Assembly: GCF_002090075.1 (NCBI RefSeq) | Contig: NZ_BBRI01000002.1 | Coordinates: forward strand, 682,001-746,000 | Reading direction: 5' to 3' | Source of the DNA: Demequina sp. NBRC 110052 | GTDB lineage: Bacteria; Actinomycetota; Actinomycetes; Actinomycetales; Demequinaceae | Length of the DNA: 64,000 nucleotides | In this document: piece after piece, positions 2,921 through 14,108 of the stretch | Position numbering within the stretch: the first letter of the stretch is position 1 | How the letters are laid out: every line of letters begins with the position of its first letter | Translations under genes and position numbers: made by a program | Notes under the pieces: generated by a model | Databases searched by the model: none | Told to the model about the DNA's origin: nothing | Seen by the model: the letters and a program-made list of their open reading frames with translations, nothing else

Positions 2921-3703
2921 GTGCTTCCCGTCCTCTTCTCGATCGGCGGCCTCGACGTGCAGTCGTACGGCGTGAGCAAGGCTCTCGCCGCGCTCGTCGC
3001 GGCGTACCTGCTCGGCCGCGCGTTCCGCACACGAGGCCTTGAGCCCGACGACGCTCACGCCATGGTGATGTGGGCGACCATCTGGGGCTTCGTGGGCGGC
3101 AAGATCTACTTTCTGCTCGAGCACGCCGACCAGCTCTCGTGGCATCACCTGGGAGGAGCAGGCTTCACCTGGTACGGCGGGCTGATCGGTGGCGTCGCAA
3201 CGTTCCTCATCATGATCCGCCGCAGGCACCTGCCCGCCGCCACCGTGATCGATGCCGCCGCGATCCCCCTCGCTCTCGCCTACGGCATCGGCCGGCTCGG
3301 CTGCTGGCTCTCGGGCGATGGCACCTACGGCAAGCCCACTGACCTGCCCTGGGGCGAGACGTACCCCCAGGGAATGGTGCCCACCGAGGTCCCGGTGCAC
3401 CCGACGCCGCTGTACGAGTCGCTCGCTGCGCTCGTCATCGTCGCCATCCTGTGGACCGTGCGCCGGCTCCCGCTGCGCCCCCTCCAGCTCTTCGGCGCCT
3501 ACCTGATCCTCTCGGGGATCTCGCGCTTCCTCGTGGAGTTCCTGCGCATCAACGAGCCCGCGCTGCTGGGCCTCACGCAGCCCCAACTGTGGTCACTCGC
3601 GAGCGTCATCGGCGGCGCGGCGATCATCGTCGCAGCACAGCGGCGCGCGCCCGGCCCGGTGGACGCCCTGCCCGTCACGGAGCAGGCGGCAGCGTCACAG
3701 TGA
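2921..3703 (+). CDS. Lgt-like membrane protein lacking key acyltransferase residues
   Basis: A 260-aa polytopic protein; GTG at 2921 follows AAGGA. It has the overall layout of prolipoprotein diacylglyceryl transferase: the N-terminal FSIGGLDVQSYG, several membrane spans, PVHPTPLYES, and a C-terminal ISRFLVEFLR. At the two catalytic motifs it departs from true Lgt. The HGGL segment reads WYGGLIGG (no His), and GRLGNF reads GRLGCWLSGDGTYG (Asn replaced by Cys). It may be a divergent Lgt-family protein with another membrane role, perhaps linked to the thiol-redox genes downstream. Its 3' end overlaps the convergent kinase gene by 29 nt. A housekeeping lgt probably lies elsewhere (inference). 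Confidence 0.8.
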   Translation: MLPVLFSIGGLDVQSYGVSKALAALVAAYLLGRAFRTRGLEPDDAHAMVMWATIWGFVGGKIYFLLEHADQLSWHHLGGAGFTWYGGLIGGVATFLIMIRRRHLPAATVIDAAAIPLALAYGIGRLGCWLSGDGTYGKPTDLPWGETYPQGMVPTEVPVHPTPLYESLAALVIVAILWTVRRLPLRPLQLFGAYLILSGISRFLVEFLRINEPALLGLTQPQLWSLASVIGGAAIIVAAQRRAPGPVDALPVTEQAAASQ

Positions 3704-4772
3704 AGGTGGCCCCGTGCCCGACGCCGGGGCTGGCTGCCTCGACAGCGCCGCCGTGGGCCTCGACGAGGGCCTTCACGATCGCGAGCCCGACGCCGGAGCC
3801 GCCGCGCGCCCTGTCCCTCGCCTCGTCGACGCGATAGAAGCGCTCGAATACGAACGGCAGGTGCGCGGCGTCGATGCCCACACCCGTATCGGCGACGGCG
3901 ATCGCAATGCCCCGGCCCGAGCGTCGGGCATGGACCGTGACCCTGCCGCCCGCGGGCGTGTGCCGCAGCGCATTGTCGAGCAGGTTCCCCAGCACCTGCG
4001 CCAGACGCTCACCGTCGACGTCCACGCGCGGAAGTCCGGCCTCGGCGGACCCCTCCAACGCGACCTCCGCCTCCGCAAAGCGCTGCCGGGCGCGCGCGAT
4101 CGCGTCCTCGACCAGGCCCGACGCCGTGCGCGCCTCGCGCGCAAGGCTCACCGCACCGCTCTCGGCCCGGGTGACCGCGGCAAGATCGTCGCTCAGCCGA
4201 GCGAGGCGAGCACCCTCGCCGCGCAGCATCGCCACCACATCAGGCGACAGCTCCTCGACCCCGTCCTCGAGGCTCTCCAGGTACGCGTTCATCGTGGCCA
4301 CCGGCGTGCGGAGCTCATGCGCCACATCCGAGAGCAACCGCTGACGCAACTGCTCGCTCGCCTCGAGCCGCACCGCCATCTGATTGAAGGCGGCGGCGAG
4401 CTCCTCGAACTCGCCTCCCATCCGCGGGTCCGGCACGCGAGCCTCGAGAGAGCCCCCCGCGATGTCGTGCGCCGCGCGGGCCAGGTGCGCCAGCGAGGCG
4501 CCCAGCCGGCGCGCGATCAGGAAGCTCACCGCGAGCGCGGCGACCGCCCCCATGAGCATGCCGACCGCGAGCGCGCGGCCGCTGGCCTCCTCGAAGGCAA
4601 GCTCGGCGTGCGCGACTGCCTCCTCACCCGTGCGCGTGCCGCCATCCACGAGGTGATCGTGGAAGGCGCCGGGGCCGACGAGCCCTGCGACCAGCCACGT
4701 GGTGACGCCTGCAGCGACGAGCACCACAGCGATCGCGACGATCAGCCGCAGGCTGAGACCGGCTCTGCGCAT
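3675..4772 (-). CDS. sensor histidine kinase of two-component system 1
   Basis: A 365-aa kinase following its response regulator. ATG at 4772 has GGGGGAG 8 nt upstream; the GTG at 4781 would overlap the regulator stop but has poor spacing. Layout: TM1 about residues 8-30, a short extracytoplasmic loop (PGAFHDHLVDGG), TM2 about residues 65-88, HAMP, HisKA with phospho-acceptor in SDVAHELRTPVATM, N-box LLDNALRHTPAGG, and ATP-binding VADTGVGID plus GGSGVGLAIV. It is paralogous to the kinase at 9666-10772. The His residues in the loop hint at a metal or redox signal, but the signal is unknown. Confidence 0.93.
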   Translation of the reverse strand: MRRAGLSLRLIVAIAVVLVAAGVTTWLVAGLVGPGAFHDHLVDGGTRTGEEAVAHAELAFEEASGRALAVGMLMGAVAALAVSFLIARRLGASLAHLARAAHDIAGGSLEARVPDPRMGGEFEELAAAFNQMAVRLEASEQLRQRLLSDVAHELRTPVATMNAYLESLEDGVEELSPDVVAMLRGEGARLARLSDDLAAVTRAESGAVSLAREARTASGLVEDAIARARQRFAEAEVALEGSAEAGLPRVDVDGERLAQVLGNLLDNALRHTPAGGRVTVHARRSGRGIAIAVADTGVGIDAAHLPFVFERFYRVDEARDRARGGSGVGLAIVKALVEAHGGAVEAASPGVGHGATFTVTLPPAP

Positions 4773-4777
4773 GGCGC

Positions 4778-5497
<720 letters not shown>

Positions 5498-5503
5498 GCG
5501 CCC

Positions 5504-5533
5504 ATTGTCCACGCGCATGTCCCGCCGGGTCAC
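5504..5533 (-). promoter_or_regulatory. leaderless promoter of response regulator 1
   Basis: Read on the minus strand: -35 GTGACC, 18-nt spacer, -10 GACAAT, then 6 nt to the ATG at 5497. The same AATGG(G/A)CG(C/T)ATG context precedes the paralogous regulator start at 11485, which supports both starts. Confidence 0.55.
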
Positions 5534-5560
5534 GACCGTGCGGCCCTGTGCGTACGCGAT

Positions 5561-5578
5561 CTTGATCGAACCTTGATG
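5561..5578 (+). promoter_or_regulatory. response-regulator direct repeat CTTGATCGAACCTTGATG
   Basis: Two CTTGAT half-sites with 11-bp period lie between the divergent regulator gene (minus strand) and the glutaredoxin/CcdA operon (plus strand). The site is 27 nt from the regulator's -35 box and about 80 nt before the glutaredoxin start, so it could serve both. Confidence 0.6.
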
Positions 5579-5659
5579 CAACCGCAGTCGATCGTGAATG
5601 CGCCGCTCCAAGACTGGAGCCACCGATCGATCACGGGCCCCGGCCCTGAGGAGGACGCG

Positions 5660-7639: not shown

Positions 7640-7678
7640 CCGCGGTCGCCCCCTGCCCCCCAGCGCGCGACCGCCGAC

Positions 7679-7713
7679 GAGGGTGCCGACGCCATCTGCG
7701 CGTCGGCACCCTC
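7679..7713. terminator. strong bidirectional terminator hairpin
   Basis: Perfect 14-bp stem GAGGGTGCCGACGC / GCGTCGGCACCCTC with a 7-nt loop, followed by CTTCGCG. It separates the convergent redox operon and the amino-acid ABC transporter operon. Confidence 0.85.
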
Positions 7714-7728
7714 TTCGCGCGCGAGGCG

Positions 7729-8403
7729 TCACCCGACCCGCGCGAGGCCCCGCGAGAGCCGGCGTTCGAGCATCGCCTGGCCGGCACCGAGCACGAGGCA
7801 CACACCCCAGTAGACGAACGCCGCCTCGACGTACAGCACGAGGAACTCCTGGCTGAAAGCGGCGATCTGCTGAGCCTCGCGGAACAGTTCGGTGACGAGG
7901 ATCAGGGAGGCGAGCGAGGTGTCCTTGACGAGCGAGATGAACGTGTTCGCCAGCGGAGGCACGGCGATGCGCGCGGACTGCGGCAGCACGACCTGCGTGA
8001 GCGCCTGCGTCCGCGTCAGGCCCACTGACGACGCTGCCTCCCATTGGCCGGTGGGGACGGCAAGGATCGCCGAGCGCACCACCTCGGCGCCGTAGCCTCC
8101 CACGTTGAGCGAGAACGCGATGATCGCCGACGGCCACGGATCGATCGTGAGACCGAGCGACGGCAGCCCGTAGAACACCACGAACAGCTGCACCAGCAGG
8201 GGTGTACCGCGGATCACCGAGACGTACACGGCCGCAATCGCGGACACGACGCGCCGCCGCGAGATGCGCATAAGCGCCACACCCACCGCGATGGCAAGAC
8301 CGATGGCGAACGACGCAAGGGCGAGCGGGATCGTGCCTCGGATCGCCCCGCCCACGAGAGGGCCGAGCGATCCGAGGACGAGATCCCAGTCGATCTGCGT
8401 CAC
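7729..8403 (-). CDS. amino-acid (cystine-type) ABC transporter permease
   Basis: A 224-aa HisM-type permease. It begins with GTG overlapping the stop of the binding-protein gene (GTGA). The hallmark IRGTPLLVQLFVVFYGLP is at about residues 64-81, and the EAA-like loop is EAASSVGLTRTQALTQVVLP. About five membrane spans are visible. Partner: the lipoprotein encoded upstream. No ATPase gene follows, so the ATP-binding subunit must come from elsewhere. The substrate assignment follows the binding protein and the Cys-rich leader peptide. Confidence 0.88.
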   Translation of the reverse strand: MTQIDWDLVLGSLGPLVGGAIRGTIPLALASFAIGLAIAVGVALMRISRRRVVSAIAAVYVSVIRGTPLLVQLFVVFYGLPSLGLTIDPWPSAIIAFSLNVGGYGAEVVRSAILAVPTGQWEAASSVGLTRTQALTQVVLPQSARIAVPPLANTFISLVKDTSLASLILVTELFREAQQIAAFSQEFLVLYVEAAFVYWGVCLVLGAGQAMLERRLSRGLARVG

Positions 8404-9221
8404 GCCGTGCCCGCAGTGGAGACGTCCGCGCCGAAGTAGCGCTCAGAGATCTCCGCGAGCGTGCCGTCCTCTTCGAGCACGGCCAGTGCGTCGCTGACCG
8501 CCTCCGCCAGCTCCTCGCTGCCGTCTGCGAAGGCGAATGCGCTGCGCGAGACGTCATCGGTCTCAGCGGCGATGCGCAGGTCGTCGGCACCCGTCTGCTG
8601 GACGTAGTCGAGGTAGGTGAGGCGATCGTTGATCGTCGCATCCACACGGCCCTGACGCACCAGAGACACGGCCTGCGCCCATCCCTCGATGGGCTCGATC
8701 TGCGCACCTACCGACTCGGCGAGCGTGTACCAGTTCGACGTGAGCGACTGTGCGGCCCGCAGACCGGCGAGATCGTCGAAAGAGGCAACCTCGGAGTCGA
8801 GCGAGGTCACGACCACGCCGGTCGAGTAGGTGTACGGGCTCGAGAACACGTACGCCTCCTCACGCTCAGGCGTGATTGAGACCTGGTTCGCGATCACATC
8901 GAACCGCCCCGCGTCGAGGCCAGCGAAGATGGCGTCCCACTGGGTCTCCTCGAAGGTCACGTCGACCCCGAGTTCAGCAGCCACCGCGCGGATCACGTCC
9001 ACGTCGTAGCCCACGAGGTCGCCGGAACCGTCCTCGTGGTAGCTGAAGGGCCGGTACGTGCCCTCGGTTCCGACCACCAGCACGCCCGCCTCCTGAACGG
9101 CGGCGAGCGACTCGTCGGACTGCGGAGTGGCCGAGGCGTCGGCCTGGCTCTCCGCCGTGGAGCATGCCGCGAGAGTCAAAGCGGCCACGGCGATCAGGGG
9201 CAGTGCGAGACGGATTCTCAT
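8400..9221 (-). CDS. cystine-type ABC transporter substrate-binding lipoprotein
   Basis: A 273-aa lipoprotein with signal [20 protein letters not shown]; the lipobox is LAAC. The mature part shows the polar-amino-acid family-3 fold, closest in feel to TcyA/FliY cystine proteins: GTEGTYRPFSYHEDGSGDLV, VDVTFEETQWDAIFAGLDAG, DVIANQVSITPEREEAY and SSPYTYSTGVVV. Upstream at 9391-9480 a leader peptide ends in SCRMCTCSCRLA, which fits cysteine-dependent control and supports cystine or a related sulfur amino acid as substrate. The specificity remains an inference. Confidence 0.88.
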   Translation of the reverse strand: MRIRLALPLIAVAALTLAACSTAESQADASATPQSDESLAAVQEAGVLVVGTEGTYRPFSYHEDGSGDLVGYDVDVIRAVAAELGVDVTFEETQWDAIFAGLDAGRFDVIANQVSITPEREEAYVFSSPYTYSTGVVVTSLDSEVASFDDLAGLRAAQSLTSNWYTLAESVGAQIEPIEGWAQAVSLVRQGRVDATINDRLTYLDYVQQTGADDLRIAAETDDVSRSAFAFADGSEELAEAVSDALAVLEEDGTLAEISERYFGADVSTAGTA

Positions 9222-9390
9222 GGGGTGTTCCTTTCGTGAGCGCGCGACAGCACGGTGCTGACGCGCGGAGGTGCGCTGGGGCGCCTGTCAAGGTGCGCGC
9301 AGCGTCGGCGGCGCGCGGAAGCCGCCCTCACGGGGCGGTCGTCATGGGGGCGCGCAGTGCGCGCTGGCGGCCCTCAGCGAGCCGCTGCTG

Positions 9391-9480
9391 TCACGCGAGG
9401 CGACAGCTGCACGTGCACATTCGACAGCTCACGGACGCGGCGCGAGTGGCGGGCGTCGACGTGGCGAAAGCGGCGTGCAT
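9391..9480 (-). CDS. Cys-rich leader peptide (sulfur-responsive attenuator)
   Basis: A 29-codon reading frame, ATG at 9480 to TGA at 9391, ending SCRMCTCSCRLA with four Cys codons (TGT, TGC, TGC, TGT) among the last eleven sense codons. A -10 box TAGCGT (plus-strand 9488-9493) lies 7 nt before the ATG, so it is probably leaderless. Short Cys-rich leader frames of this kind control sulfur genes in actinobacteria by ribosome stalling. The 170 nt between its stop and the binding-protein start are GC-rich with several self-complementary runs that could form alternative hairpins. Identification rests on composition and position. Confidence 0.7.
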   Translation of the reverse strand: MHAAFATSTPATRAASVSCRMCTCSCRLA

Positions 9481-9553
9481 GGCGAAGACGCTAACACTTG
9501 GGAACCGAGCGCCGTGACCACGTCGCGTGGCCTCGTGCGTGAGACCGCGCGTT

Positions 9554-9571
9554 CTTGATCGAACGTTGATC
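9554..9571 (+). promoter_or_regulatory. response-regulator direct repeat CTTGATCGAACGTTGATC
   Basis: A CTTGATC-type repeat with 11-bp period, 74 nt upstream of the Cys-rich leader ATG (minus strand). It matches the sites at 2834 and 5561 and may place the cystine transporter under two-component system 1. The plus strand downstream carries no gene. Confidence 0.5.
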
Positions 9572-9665
9572 CGGCCGCGGACGCCCTGGGAGGCGCTGCG
9601 TGCGCGGAACGGGCGGCAGAGCACTGGCTGACTCGCAGGACACGTCGCTCAGGCTGCGGGCGGAG

Positions 9666-10772
9666 TCACAGCGCGGGAAGAGTGACAGTGAACGTCGCCC
9701 CATGCCCGACGCCCGAGCTGGCGACCTCCACCGTCCCACCGTGCGCCTGCACCAGTGCGCGCACGATCGCCAGCCCGACGCCGGACCCGCCGCTCGCTCG
9801 ATCCCGCGCCTCATCAGCCCGGTAGAAACGCTCGAACACGTACGGAAGGTGCTCCGCCGCGATCCCCGACCCCGTGTCCGCGACGCTCAACGCGACGCCC
9901 TCGCCCGAGCGTCGGGCGCTGAGAGCGACGGCGCCGCCCGCGGGCGTATGCCTCAACGCGTTGTCCACGAGGTTGCCCAGCACCTGCGCCATCCGCTCCA
10001 GATCGACTCGCACGCGCGGCAGGTCCCCCGGGGCGTCGAGCTCGAGCGCCACCTCCGCCGCTGCGGCACGTTCAACGCTCGCAGCGCGTGCGGTGGCCAG
10101 CAGCTCGGCGGGATCGTGCTCCACGAGGTCCAGCCGCACCTGTCCGGCCTCCGCACGCGACACGGCGGAGAGGTCCTCGCTGAGCCGGGTGAGCCGCGCC
10201 GCCTGTGCGCGGAGCATCGCCACGGTCTCAGGCGTCAGCTCGGCCACGCCGTCCTCGAGCCCCTCCAAGTAGCCGGCGATCGTCGCGACAGGAGTGCGCA
10301 GTTCGTGCGCCACGTCCCCGATCGCGCGCTGCCGCAACCGCTCGCTGTGCTCCAAACGCTCGGTCATGACGTTGATCGAGTCCGCGAGCTCATCGAACTC
10401 GCGACCCATGCCGGGCGACGGGACGCGCGCCCCGTATTCACCGTCGGCGACGCGATGCACCGCGCCACCCAGCGCACCCAGAGAGGCCCCCACGCGCCTC
10501 GCCACCAGCACGCTCACGAGTGCCGCTGCCGCCACCGCGACCACGAGCGCGATGGCGAGCGCCATCGCGCTCGACGACGCCGCAGCCCGCTGGGTCTCGA
10601 GCAGGTCGCTCATCATCCCGTGGCGCATCATGCCGCGCAGCCGCTGCTCAAGCACTCGCGGCGCGATCGCGCGATCCACGAACCACACCACGACGACGGT
10701 CACGACCACCACGGCACCGAACGCCATCACCAGCCGGGTCGCAAGCCCCCGCTCCTTGAGCCAGCCGTTCAC
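9666..10772 (-). CDS. sensor histidine kinase of two-component system 2 (probable copper sensor)
   Basis: A 368-aa kinase; its GTG overlaps the regulator stop (GTGA). Architecture: TM1 about residues 12-33, an extracytoplasmic loop with GMMRHGMM at about residues 47-54, TM2 about residues 65-90, HAMP, HisKA (IGDVAHELRTPVATIAGYLE), N-box LVDNALRHTPAGGAV, and VADTGSGIA plus GGSGVGLAIVRALV. The Met/His cluster is a plausible Cu(I) ligand set and fits the adjacent multicopper oxidase. The gene is a clear paralogue of the kinase at 3675-4772. The copper assignment is an inference from loop and context. Confidence 0.93.
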   Translation of the reverse strand: MNGWLKERGLATRLVMAFGAVVVVTVVVVWFVDRAIAPRVLEQRLRGMMRHGMMSDLLETQRAAASSSAMALAIALVVAVAAAALVSVLVARRVGASLGALGGAVHRVADGEYGARVPSPGMGREFDELADSINVMTERLEHSERLRQRAIGDVAHELRTPVATIAGYLEGLEDGVAELTPETVAMLRAQAARLTRLSEDLSAVSRAEAGQVRLDLVEHDPAELLATARAASVERAAAAEVALELDAPGDLPRVRVDLERMAQVLGNLVDNALRHTPAGGAVALSARRSGEGVALSVADTGSGIAAEHLPYVFERFYRADEARDRASGGSGVGLAIVRALVQAHGGTVEVASSGVGHGATFTVTLPAL

Positions 10773-11485
10773 GTGTCGGCTCCAGTCCCGATGCGATAGC
10801 CCACACCGCGCACCGTCCGCACGTACCGCTGCCGCTCCGCCGAGTCGCCGAGCTTCTGCCGCACGTGCCGCACGTGCACATCAACCAAATGCTCGTCGCC
10901 CACCCAGTCGCCACCCCACACTTCAACGAGGAGGTTCGCCCGCGTCAGGACGCGCGCGGGGTGCTCGGCGAGCACGGCGAGAATGTCGAACTCGGTGCGC
11001 GTCAGCGGCACCAGCTCTCCACCCAGACGTGCCTCACGCGCCGGCGCATCGATCTCGAGGTCGCCGACGGTGAGCGTCGGAGCTTCGGCCGATGCAGCGT
11101 CGGACGCATCCAAACGGGGCCTGCGCATCATCGCCCTGAGCCGGGCGACGAGCTCTCGCGGACTGAACGGCTTGGTCATGTAGTCGTCGGCGCCCACCGA
11201 GAGACCCACGAGAGTGTCGACCTCCTCGGCTCGCGCCGTCAGCATCACGACGTAGCAGTCGGAGAACGTCCTGAGACGCCTGCACACCTCGATGCCGTCG
11301 ATGCCCGGCAGGCCGATGTCCAGCACCACCACGTCCGGGTCCAGCGTTCGCGCTCGCTCCACCGCGTCCTCGCCGTCGTGCGCAACCTCCACCTCGTAGC
11401 CGTCCTTCACGAGGTACCCCGCCACGAGGTCCGCCAGCGCAGACTCGTCCTCCACCACGAGAGCGCGAAGCGGGACAGCGGCCAT
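10769..11485 (-). CDS. OmpR-family response regulator of two-component system 2
   Basis: A 238-aa regulator: VVEDESALADLVAGYLVKDG, acceptor Asp in DVVVLDIGLPGIDG, KPFSPRELVARLRAMMRR, and winged helix LTRTEFDILAVLAEHP with recognition helix DEHLVDVHVRHVRQKLG. Two starts are possible. ATG 11485 sits 6 nt after CAGAAT, in the same context as the paralogue at 5497. ATG 11548 overlaps the oxidase stop and has GGAGG, but would add 21 residues before the receiver. Both may be used, giving an internal leaderless transcript as well as operon readthrough. Probable target: CTTCATCGAATCTTCAT upstream of the operon. Confidence 0.92.
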   Translation of the reverse strand: MAAVPLRALVVEDESALADLVAGYLVKDGYEVEVAHDGEDAVERARTLDPDVVVLDIGLPGIDGIEVCRRLRTFSDCYVVMLTARAEEVDTLVGLSVGADDYMTKPFSPRELVARLRAMMRRPRLDASDAASAEAPTLTVGDLEIDAPAREARLGGELVPLTRTEFDILAVLAEHPARVLTRANLLVEVWGGDWVGDEHLVDVHVRHVRQKLGDSAERQRYVRTVRGVGYRIGTGADT

Positions 11486-11544
11486 ACGTCCATTCTGGTG
11501 CGGCGCTGCCGCCGCAGCGACGCCACCATGCCCCGGGAGGACCG

Positions 11545-12987
11545 TCATGACGCCTCCACGACGCCCATCATGCCCAGGTCTTCGTGGTCCAGGATGTGGC
11601 AGTGATAGACCGTGGGGCCGGCAAAGCGGTCGAACGCGACGCGCACCCGCACCCGCTGACCCGCGGGCACATCGACCACGTCGCGTACCTCCACCTCGTC
11701 AGAGTCGATCAGCTGCATCGGCCAGACGTGAAGGTGGAACGGGTGGTCCATGCCCGTCGCGTTCACCAGCGTCCAGTCCTCGACGGCGCCCAACCGCACC
11801 GACTGATCCACCCGCTCGGGATCGAACTCGCGTCCGTCGATGAGGAACGACATCCCACCCATGCCGCCCATCCCCATGGTGAACGTGATCTCGCGCTCTC
11901 GCGCCACGGTGGCATCGCGCAGGTCGACGGGTGCCGAGGCGTCTCCGGGAGTCGCGGGGGACGCGGCCGACGCGTCGGGCACCAGGGTCAGGATCGTCGC
12001 GTCCGTACCCGAATCGGGGGCGCCCATCATGCCCATGCCGGCGCCTCGTGCGTAGGCGCGGGCGACGAGCGCGGTCGAGGACGCGGGCGCATCGACCTGC
12101 AGGTCGGCGCGGCCTCCGGGGGGCACCACGAGCGAGTCCGTGGACACCGGCCGCGCGAGGCCGCCGATGTCGACGCTCCTGACCGTCAGTGACGGTCCGC
12201 CGAGGCTCAGGTAGCGGCTGGTGCAGGCATTGACGAGCAGCAGCCTCTCGGTCGTGCCGGGCGCGACCGGCAGCTGCGGCGCGCGGGCGCCATTGGTCAG
12301 CAGCGTCTCGCCGACGCGCCCCATGCGGCGCTCCATCGCGGACACGTTCGCGACGGCGCCGCCCGAGAGCGTCACATCGGACACCACGACCACGCGGGGC
12401 GCGCCGTCGGACCAGTCGTCCTCGTCCACGACAAGCGCGCCGTAGAGCCCGCCGAAGACCTGATCGGCGACGTGCCCGTGATGATGCGGGTGGTACCACG
12501 CGACACCGTGTGGATGGTCGGCGGGGATGTCGATGAGATAGTCGAACGACTCCCCCGGCTCGACGCGCCTGAACGGGTTGTCGGAGGCGCCCGTCGCGGA
12601 GACCGCGAGCCCATGCGTGTGGAGGTTCGTCACCTCGCTGAGGCCGTTCACCAGCCTCACCCTCAAGGTGTCGCCGGGGCGCACGTGCAGCGTCGGGCCG
12701 GGCACCGTGCCGTTGTAGGTGAGCATGGTCGCGGTCGCGCCCGCGATAGCGACGGTGGTCTCCGCGACGGTCAGCTCAAGGTCGAGGACGCCCTCGGACG
12801 ATTCGAGCACGGCCGGCTCTGTCCACTCCGCCGCGGTTCGTGTGCCCGAGGCGGCCCCTGTGGACGAATCACCGTCGGAGCCGCGGCTCGCCGCGACGAC
12901 GGCACCCATGCCGACCATGCCGACGCCCGCGAGGCCCATGGCGAGGGCCTCGCGGCGCGTCGGGAAGTCGCCATCGCGGCGCGTCAC
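11545..12987 (-). CDS. multicopper oxidase, exported (Tat-like signal)
   Basis: About 480 aa. GTG at 12987 is chosen for the GAGG 6 nt upstream; TTG at 13002 overlaps the SHOCT gene. The N-terminus has TRREALAMGLAGVGMVGMGA, a twin-arginine-like signal. Copper sites are complete: NLHTHGL, WYHPHHHGHVADQVFGGLYG, DHPFHLHVWPMQ and YHCHILDHEDLGMM (type 1 with axial Met). A Met/Gly-rich stretch (TFTMGMGGMGGMSF) recalls the Cu-binding Met region of CueO/CopA oxidases. The role is probably oxidation of Cu(I) outside the membrane. It lies in one transcript with a SHOCT protein and a two-component system. Confidence 0.9.
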   Translation of the reverse strand: MTRRDGDFPTRREALAMGLAGVGMVGMGAVVAASRGSDGDSSTGAASGTRTAAEWTEPAVLESSEGVLDLELTVAETTVAIAGATATMLTYNGTVPGPTLHVRPGDTLRVRLVNGLSEVTNLHTHGLAVSATGASDNPFRRVEPGESFDYLIDIPADHPHGVAWYHPHHHGHVADQVFGGLYGALVVDEDDWSDGAPRVVVVSDVTLSGGAVANVSAMERRMGRVGETLLTNGARAPQLPVAPGTTERLLLVNACTSRYLSLGGPSLTVRSVDIGGLARPVSTDSLVVPPGGRADLQVDAPASSTALVARAYARGAGMGMMGAPDSGTDATILTLVPDASAASPATPGDASAPVDLRDATVAREREITFTMGMGGMGGMSFLIDGREFDPERVDQSVRLGAVEDWTLVNATGMDHPFHLHVWPMQLIDSDEVEVRDVVDVPAGQRVRVRVAFDRFAGPTVYHCHILDHEDLGMMGVVEAS

Positions 12988-12988
12988 A

Positions 12989-13330
12989 TCAAGCCTCGTC
13001 AAGGGCCTTCACGCGGTCACGGAACTCCTCGGCGTCGATCTCGCCACGTGCGAGGCGGTCCTCGAGGATCTGACGGGCCGGCGTCGTCGCGGGCACCTCG
13101 GCCGCAGGGGTGGCTGCCGCGGGAGCGTCGGTCTTCGCCGGGCGGTTCGCGAGGCGCACCGCGAGATAGACGACGCCGCCGATCGCGAGGATGGCGAAGA
13201 TCCACCACAGCCACATGAGGCCCGCGCCGCCACCGGACATCATCCAGGTGCCGCTGCCAGCACCCCAGCCGTCGCCCCACATGTGGCCGCCCGCGCCGCT
13301 GCCCGTGCCATCGCCCCAGTTGTGCATCAT
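12989..13330 (-). CDS. SHOCT-domain membrane protein
   Basis: A 113-aa protein with two adjacent ATG codons at 13330/13327 and GGGAG 8 nt upstream. The first 40 residues are rich in Met, His, Gly and Trp (MMHNWGDG, GHMWGDGWG, TWMMSGGG), possibly metal-binding outside the membrane. One hydrophobic span follows (LMWLWWIFAILAIGGVVYLA). The C-terminus ARQILEDRLARGEIDAEEF is a classic SHOCT motif. First gene of the SHOCT/oxidase/two-component operon. Such genes commonly accompany copper-resistance oxidases; its own activity is unknown. Confidence 0.82.
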   Translation of the reverse strand: MMHNWGDGTGSGAGGHMWGDGWGAGSGTWMMSGGGAGLMWLWWIFAILAIGGVVYLAVRLANRPAKTDAPAAATPAAEVPATTPARQILEDRLARGEIDAEEFRDRVKALDEA

Positions 13331-13499: not shown

Positions 13500-13949
13500 T
13501 CAGACCGCGTCGGCGACCTTCTTCACGATGGCGATGCTCACGGGCGTCTCGTGCGCGAGGTTGTCCGAGACCGGGCAGCGGTCTTCGGAGATGCGTGCGA
13601 TCTCGTCGAGCTCAGCCTGGTCGGCGTCGCCCTCCACCTCGATCGACACGGTGATCGACTTGTATCCGGCGCGGGCGTCGTAGGACTTGCCCATGAATCG
13701 GGCCGGGTCCAGCTCGCCCGACGCCGTGGCCTCGAACGAGGTCAGCGTCACGCCCCGCTCCTTCGCCACGAGGTGCACGACGACGTTGAGGCAACCGAGC
13801 AGCGCACCCAGCACGTACTCGACGGGATTGGGGCCGAGATCGCCGCCGCCCAGAGCCTGTGGCTCATCGACGAGCCACTCGAACTCCCTGGCCGACACCG
13901 TCAGCCCGGTATCCGAGGTCGATACGGCGGTTGCTTCGAACGTGAGCAT
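13500..13949 (-). CDS. OsmC/Ohr family protein
   Basis: A 149-aa protein; ATG at 13949 follows GGGAG. Family features: EVLGGGD-like PQALGGGDLGPNPVEYVLGA, LLGCLNVVVHLVAKERG with the first redox Cys, and SEDRCPVSDNLAHETPV with the second. The two Cys in these positions are those used for thiol peroxidase chemistry in OsmC proteins. It probably removes organic hydroperoxides in the cytosol. It is monocistronic, with a hairpin at its 3' end. A second member of the YhfA-like branch is possible; substrate not known. Confidence 0.88.
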   Translation of the reverse strand: MLTFEATAVSTSDTGLTVSAREFEWLVDEPQALGGGDLGPNPVEYVLGALLGCLNVVVHLVAKERGVTLTSFEATASGELDPARFMGKSYDARAGYKSITVSIEVEGDADQAELDEIARISEDRCPVSDNLAHETPVSIAIVKKVADAV

Positions 13950-14108
13950 GTCCACTCCCTTGTGGTCGATGCGGGAGCGGTGGGACTCGCGTCGTGGCGG
14001 CTCCCGCGTCGTTCGACCGAGCGGGGACTCACTCTCACCGTAGAACTGCGATACAGGTGCCCAAGGGACGAAGGTCCCCACCGCGTCGGGCGTGCGAAGC
14101 GTCGGGTG

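What the first reader, a model, noticed from the sequence alone, without database searches (positions are those of the whole stretch)
9391..9480. Cys-rich leaderless leader peptide before the cystine-type ABC transporter
A 29-codon frame ends SCRMCTCSCRLA, begins 7 nt after a TAGCGT -10 box, and is followed by about 170 nt of structured leader. This is the pattern of cysteine-sensing leader frames, and it supports cystine or a related sulfur compound as substrate of the transporter.
Basis: partly seen in the sequence, partly recalled or inferred. Interest (0 to 1): 0.65.

Follow-up and report, generated by a model that had tools for sequence, protein, structure and literature searches.

The report
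Cysteine-sensing leader peptide before cystine transporter
A tiny gene ending in a cluster of cysteine codons sits in front of a cystine-uptake operon in a Demequina bacterium and very probably lets the ribosome sense cysteine shortage; the idea is known from mycobacteria, and here the same device also precedes two other cysteine operons of the genus.

Summary
On the minus strand, 9480-9391 encodes MHAAFATSTPATRAASVSCRMCTCSCRLA. Its ATG lies 7 nt after a weak extended -10 (TGT-TAGCGT), has no Shine-Dalgarno site, and is followed after 169 nt by a cystine-type binding-protein gene. Relatives show what it is. Short Cys-tail ORFs lie upstream of 24 of 95 homologous binding-protein genes (shuffles: mean 2.3, maximum 8), 23 of them in Demequina and Cellulomonadaceae. 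In Demequina they also precede cysK (30 of 30 loci examined) and the sulfite-reductase operon (29 of 30), but not ilvE (0 of 29). The window's own genome has all three leaders. So this is a cysteine-sensing leader ORF in a three-operon set. It works like the polycysteine leaderless ORFs of Mycobacterium smegmatis. The 169-nt region is only slightly more folded than shuffles and shares no structure with relatives. How stalling changes expression is unresolved: no U-tract terminator, little sign that the downstream ribosome site is buried, and a C-rich spacer that would suit Rho. It is a new member of a known kind. Side findings: the rare Cys codon UGU is enriched in the leaders, and this operon lacks its ATPase gene.

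The parts
9488..9496 (-). Extended -10 element TGT-TAGCGT, 7 nt before the leader ATG (3 of 6 letters of TATAAT)
   Evidence: a -10-like element at similar distance in relatives; consensus scan negative
9391..9480 (-). Leader ORF, 29 codons, MHAAFATSTPATRAASVSCRMCTCSCRLA, inferred leaderless
   Evidence: no Pfam family
9403..9426 (-). Cys codon cluster: TGT 9426-9424, TGC 9417-9415, TGC 9411-9409, TGT 9405-9403
   Evidence: UGU enriched in leaders
9387..9407 (-). Possible hairpin over the last Cys codon and the stop codon: GCTGTC 9407-9402 with GACAGC 9392-9387; a third copy GCTGTC at 9251-9246 could compete. Read by eye, not tested in relatives
   Evidence: sequence; not part of the predicted minimum-energy fold
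9222..9390 (-). 169-nt C-rich spacer; predicted hairpins 9338-9322 (CCGCCC/GGGCGG, no U-tract after it) and 9267-9241 (just before the SD)
   Evidence: no shared structure with relatives
9230..9235 (-). Shine-Dalgarno site GAAAGG of the binding-protein gene
8400..9221 (-). Cystine-type solute-binding lipoprotein (SBP_bac_3; best NCBIfam TcyJ, best PDB 2YLN)
7729..8403 (-). Permease (BPD_transp_1; best NCBIfam TcyL), overlapping the binding-protein gene; no ATPase gene follows

Best explanation
The cystine-uptake operon is transcribed from a start at the A of the leader ATG (inferred). A ribosome begins on this leaderless 5' end and translates 29 codons that end in a cluster of four Cys codons, two of them the rare UGU (the ORF is shown, its translation inferred). 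With ample Cys-tRNA it runs to the stop and the operon stays low. When Cys-tRNA is short it stalls on the Cys codons, and this raises expression of binding protein and permease (inferred from the mycobacterial precedent). Cys leaders before the sulfite-reductase operon and before cysK of the same genome would answer the same signal, so that uptake, sulfate reduction and cysteine synthesis rise together without a common repressor. How the stall changes expression at this operon is open. My lead is premature transcription termination without a U-tract, possibly by Rho on the C-rich spacer (about 0.45); next is RNA structure that limits translation of the binding protein (about 0.35).
For: 24 of 95 binding-protein loci have a Cys-tail ORF upstream on the sense strand, 1 of 95 on the antisense strand; shuffles 2.26 on average, at most 8 in 50 rounds. 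By group: 15 of 17 Demequina rows, 8 of 17 rows of Cellulomonadaceae with Flavimobilis, 1 of 61 others. cysK 30 of 30, sulfite reductase 29 of 30, ilvE 0 of 29 (best 30 loci of each search). The window's own genome has all three. SD-like 4-mer before 2 of 26 transporter leaders against 30 of 30 cysK leaders. C at -1 in 26 of 26 transporter leaders. UGU 68 of 99 Cys codons in transporter leaders against 1 of 95 in the binding-protein genes. Cystine-type transporter.
Against: No expression data. The -10 is weak and no -35 was found. The Cys of this leader are spread (C..C.C.C), not in a run. Most relatives outside Demequina and Cellulomonadaceae have the transporter without such a leader (1 of 61 rows). 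No conserved structure. The C-rich spacer is only a weak sign: the ilvE upstream control also has C above G in 25 of 29.
Confidence: 0.85

Rival explanations
1. Output by translation: leader and spacer RNA hide the SD or start codon of the binding-protein gene, and a ribosome stalled on the Cys codons opens them, as reported for M. smegmatis. This is a rival about the output stage only.
For: Described for M. smegmatis by citing papers (passages). In the window's leader the mean unpaired probability of the SD rises from 0.51 (free RNA) to 0.58-0.64 with a ribosome on the Cys codons, 0.56 at the stop, and its tail-to-SD-region pairing is the strongest of 14 Demequina leaders at -34.6 kcal/mol.
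Against: Over 26 leaders the SD mean stays at 0.42-0.44 whatever the ribosome position. Tail-to-SD pairing equals cross-locus pairs in Demequina (-27.40 and -27.41, shuffles -25.83) and is no stronger than shuffles in the other three sets. No conserved structure.
Confidence: 0.35
2. Classical attenuator: stalling chooses between an antiterminator and an intrinsic terminator hairpin with a U-tract.
For: Competing complementary stretches can be drawn by eye around the stop codon (GCTGTC/GACAGC).
Against: No terminator-like site on this strand and no run of four T in any of 26 spacers.
Confidence: 0.1
3. The ORF makes a functional small peptide, for example a metal- or redox-binding Cys peptide or a modified peptide, rather than a sensor.
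For: Weak NCBIfam hit to a Cys-rich RiPP precursor (15.7 bits, cut-off 45).
Against: Sequence outside the Cys tail differs widely between relatives while the tail and the position before cysteine operons stay. Pfam gives no family.
Confidence: 0.05
4. Chance ORF in GC-rich intergenic DNA.
For: Nine short Cys-tail ORFs occur in the window by the loose criterion.
Against: Only this one has a -10-like site at leaderless distance; conserved position and Cys tail in Demequina, and the same before two other cysteine operons.
Confidence: 0.03

Closest known systems
Polycysteine leaderless short ORFs of Mycobacterium smegmatis (Canestrari et al. 2020, doi 10.1111/mmi.14498; paper not held, known from passages of citing papers and from recall)
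   Same: Leaderless short ORF with Cys codons near its end before cysteine operons; several operons of one genome
   Different: Another order (Micrococcales); a cystine importer is among the targets; Cys of this leader are spread; SD burying not supported here; the cysK leaders are SD-led
Cys leader peptides predicted in Mycobacterium, P. acnes and B. longum (Seliverstov et al. 2005, PMC1262725, passages)
   Same: Cys codons near the stop, no conserved terminator, Rho proposed
   Different: There before cys operons and cbs; here before a cystine transporter, cysK and the sulfite-reductase operon of Demequina
Leaderless Cys-rich uORF before cysA2 of mycobacteria (Shell et al. 2015, PMC4633059, passages)
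   Same: Conserved leaderless ORF with a Cys cluster at its C-terminus; ribosome occupancy shown there
   Different: Other genes and genus; no ribosome data here
Classical transcription attenuators (trp type)
   Same: Leader peptide rich in the regulating amino acid
   Different: No U-tract terminator and no conserved competing hairpins in this leader class

Membership tests
Cys-responsive leaderless leader ORF (Canestrari type) | Short ORF with clustered Cys codons near its end | tested here: met
   4 Cys in the last 11 residues, none adjacent; conserved in Demequina relatives
Cys-responsive leaderless leader ORF (Canestrari type) | Leaderless start | tested here: inconclusive
   -10-like site 7 nt before the ATG and no SD; SD-like 4-mer before 2 of 26 relatives. 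Transcription start not mapped
Cys-responsive leaderless leader ORF (Canestrari type) | Located before cysteine-metabolism operons | tested here: met
   Cystine-type transporter, and cysK and sulfite-reductase operons in the same genome
Cys-responsive leaderless leader ORF (Canestrari type) | Expression rises when cysteine is short, through the Cys codons | not testable with these tools
   needs an experiment
Cys-responsive leaderless leader ORF (Canestrari type) | Structure that buries the ribosome site of the next gene and is opened by the stalled ribosome | tested here: inconclusive
   Slight effect in the window's leader, none over 26 leaders; no conserved structure
Classical attenuator with intrinsic terminator | GC-rich hairpin followed by a U-tract in the leader | tested here: not met
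   none on this strand; no TTTT in 26 of 26 spacers
Rho-dependent leader | C-rich, G-poor stretch after the leader ORF | tested here: inconclusive
   C above G in 26 of 26 spacers, but also in 25 of 29 ilvE upstream controls
Rho-dependent leader | Termination in the leader that depends on Rho | not testable with these tools
   needs an experiment
Known Rfam cis-regulatory RNA | Match over the gathering score of a family | tested here: not met
   0 matches in the window
Tcy-type cystine ABC importer | Best family match for binding protein and permease | tested here: inconclusive
   TcyJ 177 bits (cut-off 312), TcyL 237.8 bits (cut-off 300): best hits but below the cut-offs; best PDB match 2YLN
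Tcy-type cystine ABC importer | ATPase encoded in the operon | tested here: not met
   Absent here; present in 91 of 93 loci with 2 kb or more of downstream sequence; best match elsewhere in this genome 48% identity

The most novel reading that the evidence does not exclude
Demequina runs a genus-wide cysteine 'ribulon' (term recalled from Canestrari et al.): three unlinked operons for cystine uptake, sulfate reduction and cysteine synthesis, each read out by ribosomes on its own Cys leader, with different start modes (leaderless or SD-led) and different expression platforms. The sensors favour the otherwise near-absent Cys codon UGU, so that the signal may be the decoding speed of a rare Cys codon. 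In cysK leaders a helix whose 5' arm follows the stop codon directly (all 8 pairs kept in 27 of 30 sequences) is a platform not described for such leaders in the passages I read.
Probability: 0.45. Interest if true: 0.55.

Novelty: new member of a known kind. Interest (0 to 1): 0.42.

Why it matters
It extends ribosome-read cysteine control, reported in mycobacteria, to another order of Actinomycetes and to a cystine importer. It gives three natural leaders in one genus in which leaderless and SD-led versions of the same sensor can be compared. The leader also supports cystine as the substrate of an importer that sequence comparison alone places only below the curated cut-offs.

Tried and rejected
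Intrinsic terminator in the spacer: none. Rfam RNA: none in the window. Burying of the SD, tested with modelled ribosome positions and by tail-to-SD pairing: no support over the set, a slight effect in the window's own leader. A structure shared by transporter leaders: none. A named family for the peptide: none in Pfam, one sub-threshold RiPP hit in NCBIfam; the cysK and reductase leaders of this genome have none at E 0.01. ATPase elsewhere in the genome: best match 48% identity, beside a paralogous binding protein on contig 4, so no clear orthologue. My first scan read loci of minus-strand matches in the wrong orientation and a later one used too strict a Walker motif; both were replaced. One alignment of two sequences used a wrong stretch of L016 and was not used.

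Rows dropped or chosen by hand. The 26 transporter leaders (14 Demequina, 12 from Cellulomonadaceae and Flavimobilis) were chosen because they have a Cys tail. Five of them (L009, L030, L034, L045, L049) were found by a search that asked for a -10-like site near the start, so their promoter spacing is not independent; L003 was read by eye. L015 was left out because its leaderless ATG and its Cys tail lie in different frames, in a genome listed as 50% complete. L169-L171 have no certain start of the reductase gene: they count as hits and were left out. Reductase-leader starts were picked with a preference for a -10-like site. L175 was left out of the ilvE control (short upstream). One search examined only the 30 best loci of each search; searches list 46, 45 and more than 80 matches. 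L032 and L043 repeat L005 and L004 from another collection and are counted in the 95.

Full report
What is there. On the minus strand, 9480-9391 is a 29-codon frame, MHAAFATSTPATRAASVSCRMCTCSCRLA, with four Cys in its last 11 residues. TAGCGT at 9493-9488 lies 7 nt before the ATG and is preceded by TGT, an extended -10, though it matches only 3 of 6 letters of TATAAT. The consensus scan finds no promoter in 9150-9700. No SD-like site precedes the ATG. The next gene starts at 9221 after 169 nt and has a normal SD, GAAAGG at 9235-9230. The histidine-kinase gene upstream ends at 9666. On both strands of the window there are 9 distinct short ORFs with three or more Cys in the last 14 residues, and only this one has a -10-like site at leaderless distance.

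Where it is. The genome (2.6 Mb, 5 contigs) is in the same genus as G023, whose single contig has the length of Demequina sediminis NZ_AP027736.1. I take it as Demequina (Micrococcales); the species is not known to me. Of 47 genomes of the family, 14 have a close homologue of the binding protein (E up to 1e-60), so the transporter itself is patchy.

What it stands before. The gene at 9221-8400 is a family-3 solute-binding lipoprotein (SBP_bac_3). Its best NCBIfam match is TcyJ of the E. coli cystine system (177 bits, cut-off 312); that of the permease is TcyL (237.8 bits, cut-off 300). The best PDB match is 2YLN (213 bits), named as the cystine-binding protein of N. gonorrhoeae in PMC7170509 (passages). 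That paper calls Glu-48 of FliY pivotal for cystine and conserved. The window protein has VGTEGTYRPFSYH, and I place its E at that residue from recall of the FliY sequence, without an alignment. In D. sediminis the operon continues with an ATPase whose best match is TcyN (312 bits, cut-off 406). All scores are below the curated cut-offs, so 'cystine' is likely, not proven.

Is it conserved? I took the binding-protein homologues of two searches, oriented them and scanned 560 nt upstream for ORFs of 14-45 codons with three or more Cys in the last 14 residues. 24 of 95 loci have one on the sense strand and 1 of 95 on the antisense strand; dinucleotide shuffles give 2.26 on average and at most 8 in 50 rounds. 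L032 and L043 repeat L005 and L004. By group the 24 are 15 of 17 Demequina rows, 8 of 17 rows of Cellulomonadaceae with Flavimobilis, and 1 of 61 others; that one (L029) ends 465 nt away and is probably chance. The two Demequina misses carry leaders with two Cys (L003, L009), as do some Cellulomonadaceae. In L015 tail and ATG are in different frames, in a genome listed as 50% complete. So the leader goes with this transporter in Demequina and part of Cellulomonadaceae; Cryobacterium, Arthrobacter, Agromyces and other relatives in the set have the transporter without it.

Does the genome use the same device elsewhere? Yes. I located cysK and the sulfate-assimilation genes in the window's genome, took four stretches and found a Cys-tail ORF before each of the two. 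Before cysK it is MSIESRVITTPAPALAMCAAPCMPCMRAACCCL, with a normal SD. Before a NirA-type reductase gene that is followed by cysH- and cysD-type genes (PF01507) it is MTTTAPLSLRSMRAMCCVMCPSA, leaderless by sequence. NCBIfam scores that reductase best as nitrite reductase, below the cut-off; I call it sulfite reductase from its neighbours. In Demequina genomes 30 of 30 cysK loci and 29 of 30 reductase loci have such an ORF, antisense 0 and 0, shuffle means 1.2 and 0.57. The aminotransferase gene ilvE, taken as a control, has 0 of 29 (the best 30 loci of each search). This is the strongest evidence that the leader in the window senses cysteine.

Start mode. An SD-like 4-mer lies before 2 of 26 transporter leaders and 1 of 29 reductase leaders, but before 30 of 30 cysK leaders and 26 of 26 binding-protein genes. 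The base before the start is C in 26 of 26 transporter leaders, 25 of 29 reductase leaders and 5 of 30 cysK leaders. A -10-like element 6-7 nt before the start can be read in the transporter leaders; five of the 26 were found by asking for one. Sequence therefore argues for leaderless starts at two operons and an SD-led start at the third.

Codon choice. Cys codons are UGU in 68 of 99 cases in transporter leaders, 53 of 125 in reductase leaders and 41 of 176 in cysK leaders (the last two counted over the last 14 codons). They are UGU in 1 of 95 cases in the binding-protein genes and 0 of 15 in nine window genes. The window's leader has two UGU of four. At some places UGU is fixed: codon -4 of the reductase leaders (22 of 22 distinct) and codon -2 of the cysK leaders (24 of 24 distinct). 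This could be selection for slow decoding or for an RNA sequence; my data do not separate the two.

How the stall is read out. There is no terminator-like site on this strand and no run of four T in any of 26 spacers. If burying of the SD were the switch, the SD should open when the ribosome covers the leader; over 26 leaders its mean unpaired probability stays at 0.42-0.44, although in the window's own leader it goes from 0.51 to 0.58-0.64 on the Cys codons and 0.56 at the stop. Pairing of Cys tail and SD region is slightly above shuffles only in the Demequina transporter set and equals cross-locus pairs there; the window's leader has the strongest value of the 14. The transporter leaders share no structure. 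By contrast the cysK leaders share a helix whose 5' arm follows the stop codon directly: 8 pairs, four unchanged in 30 of 30, all eight kept in 27 of 30, two pairs with a double change in one sequence each. The reductase leaders share strong helices without any double change, so covariation cannot speak for them. Spacers have C above G in 26 of 26, 30 of 30 and 29 of 29, but so have 25 of 29 ilvE upstream controls. Rho-dependent termination, which Seliverstov et al. proposed for mycobacterial cys leaders (PMC1262725, passages), fits but is not shown.

Comparison with what is known. Seliverstov et al. 2005 predicted Cys leaders without terminators in Mycobacterium, P. acnes and B. longum. Shell et al. 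2015 reported conserved leaderless Cys-rich ORFs before cysA2 and other genes (PMC4633059, passages). Canestrari et al. 2020 showed cysteine-responsive attenuation in M. smegmatis; I could not read that paper and rely on passages of papers that cite it and on recall. Searches of the held library listed no paper that I recognised, from titles and abstract openings, as treating such leaders in Demequina or before a cystine importer; the key paper is not in that library.

Verdict. Observation confirmed. Interpretation supported, except for the conserved structured region. It is a new member of a known kind, in a three-operon setting in Demequina that I did not find described.

Noticed in passing
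window 7640-7728: The transporter operon has binding protein and permease but no ATPase gene: the next gene (redoxin, + strand, ending 7639) is convergent. In relatives the ATPase follows in 91 of 93 loci with 2 kb or more of downstream sequence; the best match elsewhere in this genome is 48% identical and sits beside a paralogous binding protein. The importer may borrow an ATPase or be decaying.
   Followed up: partly
L018 (Cellulomonas sp. APG4) 2977-3831: A binding-protein gene with a Cys leader but with neither permease nor ATPase after it.
   Followed up: no
cysK leaders, L113-L142: A conserved helix starts directly after the leader stop codon (GAGCGCUG...CAGCGCUC), all 8 pairs kept in 27 of 30 sequences; the leaders are SD-led.
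   Followed up: partly
reductase leaders, L143-L168: The peptide tail MC[LP].A before the stop and the sequence GGGCGCTCGGC after it are almost invariant; the second stretch could pair either with the leader end or with a following GAGCGC, as competing arms.
   Followed up: partly
PMC8079986 (passages), S. lividans metL before metNIQ: The published leader MSTTSDRTPATEATTTPGARCMCRRMCAF was read as a Met/Thr leader; its Cys-rich end resembles the leaders here and may be worth a second look as a Cys sensor.
   Followed up: no
window 3675-5623 and 9666-11548, minus strand: Two similar response-regulator/histidine-kinase gene pairs flank the redoxin and transporter genes; a multicopper oxidase gene follows at 11545-13002 and an OsmC-like gene near 13500-13955 (the 3675-5623 pair judged from its translation).
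   Followed up: no
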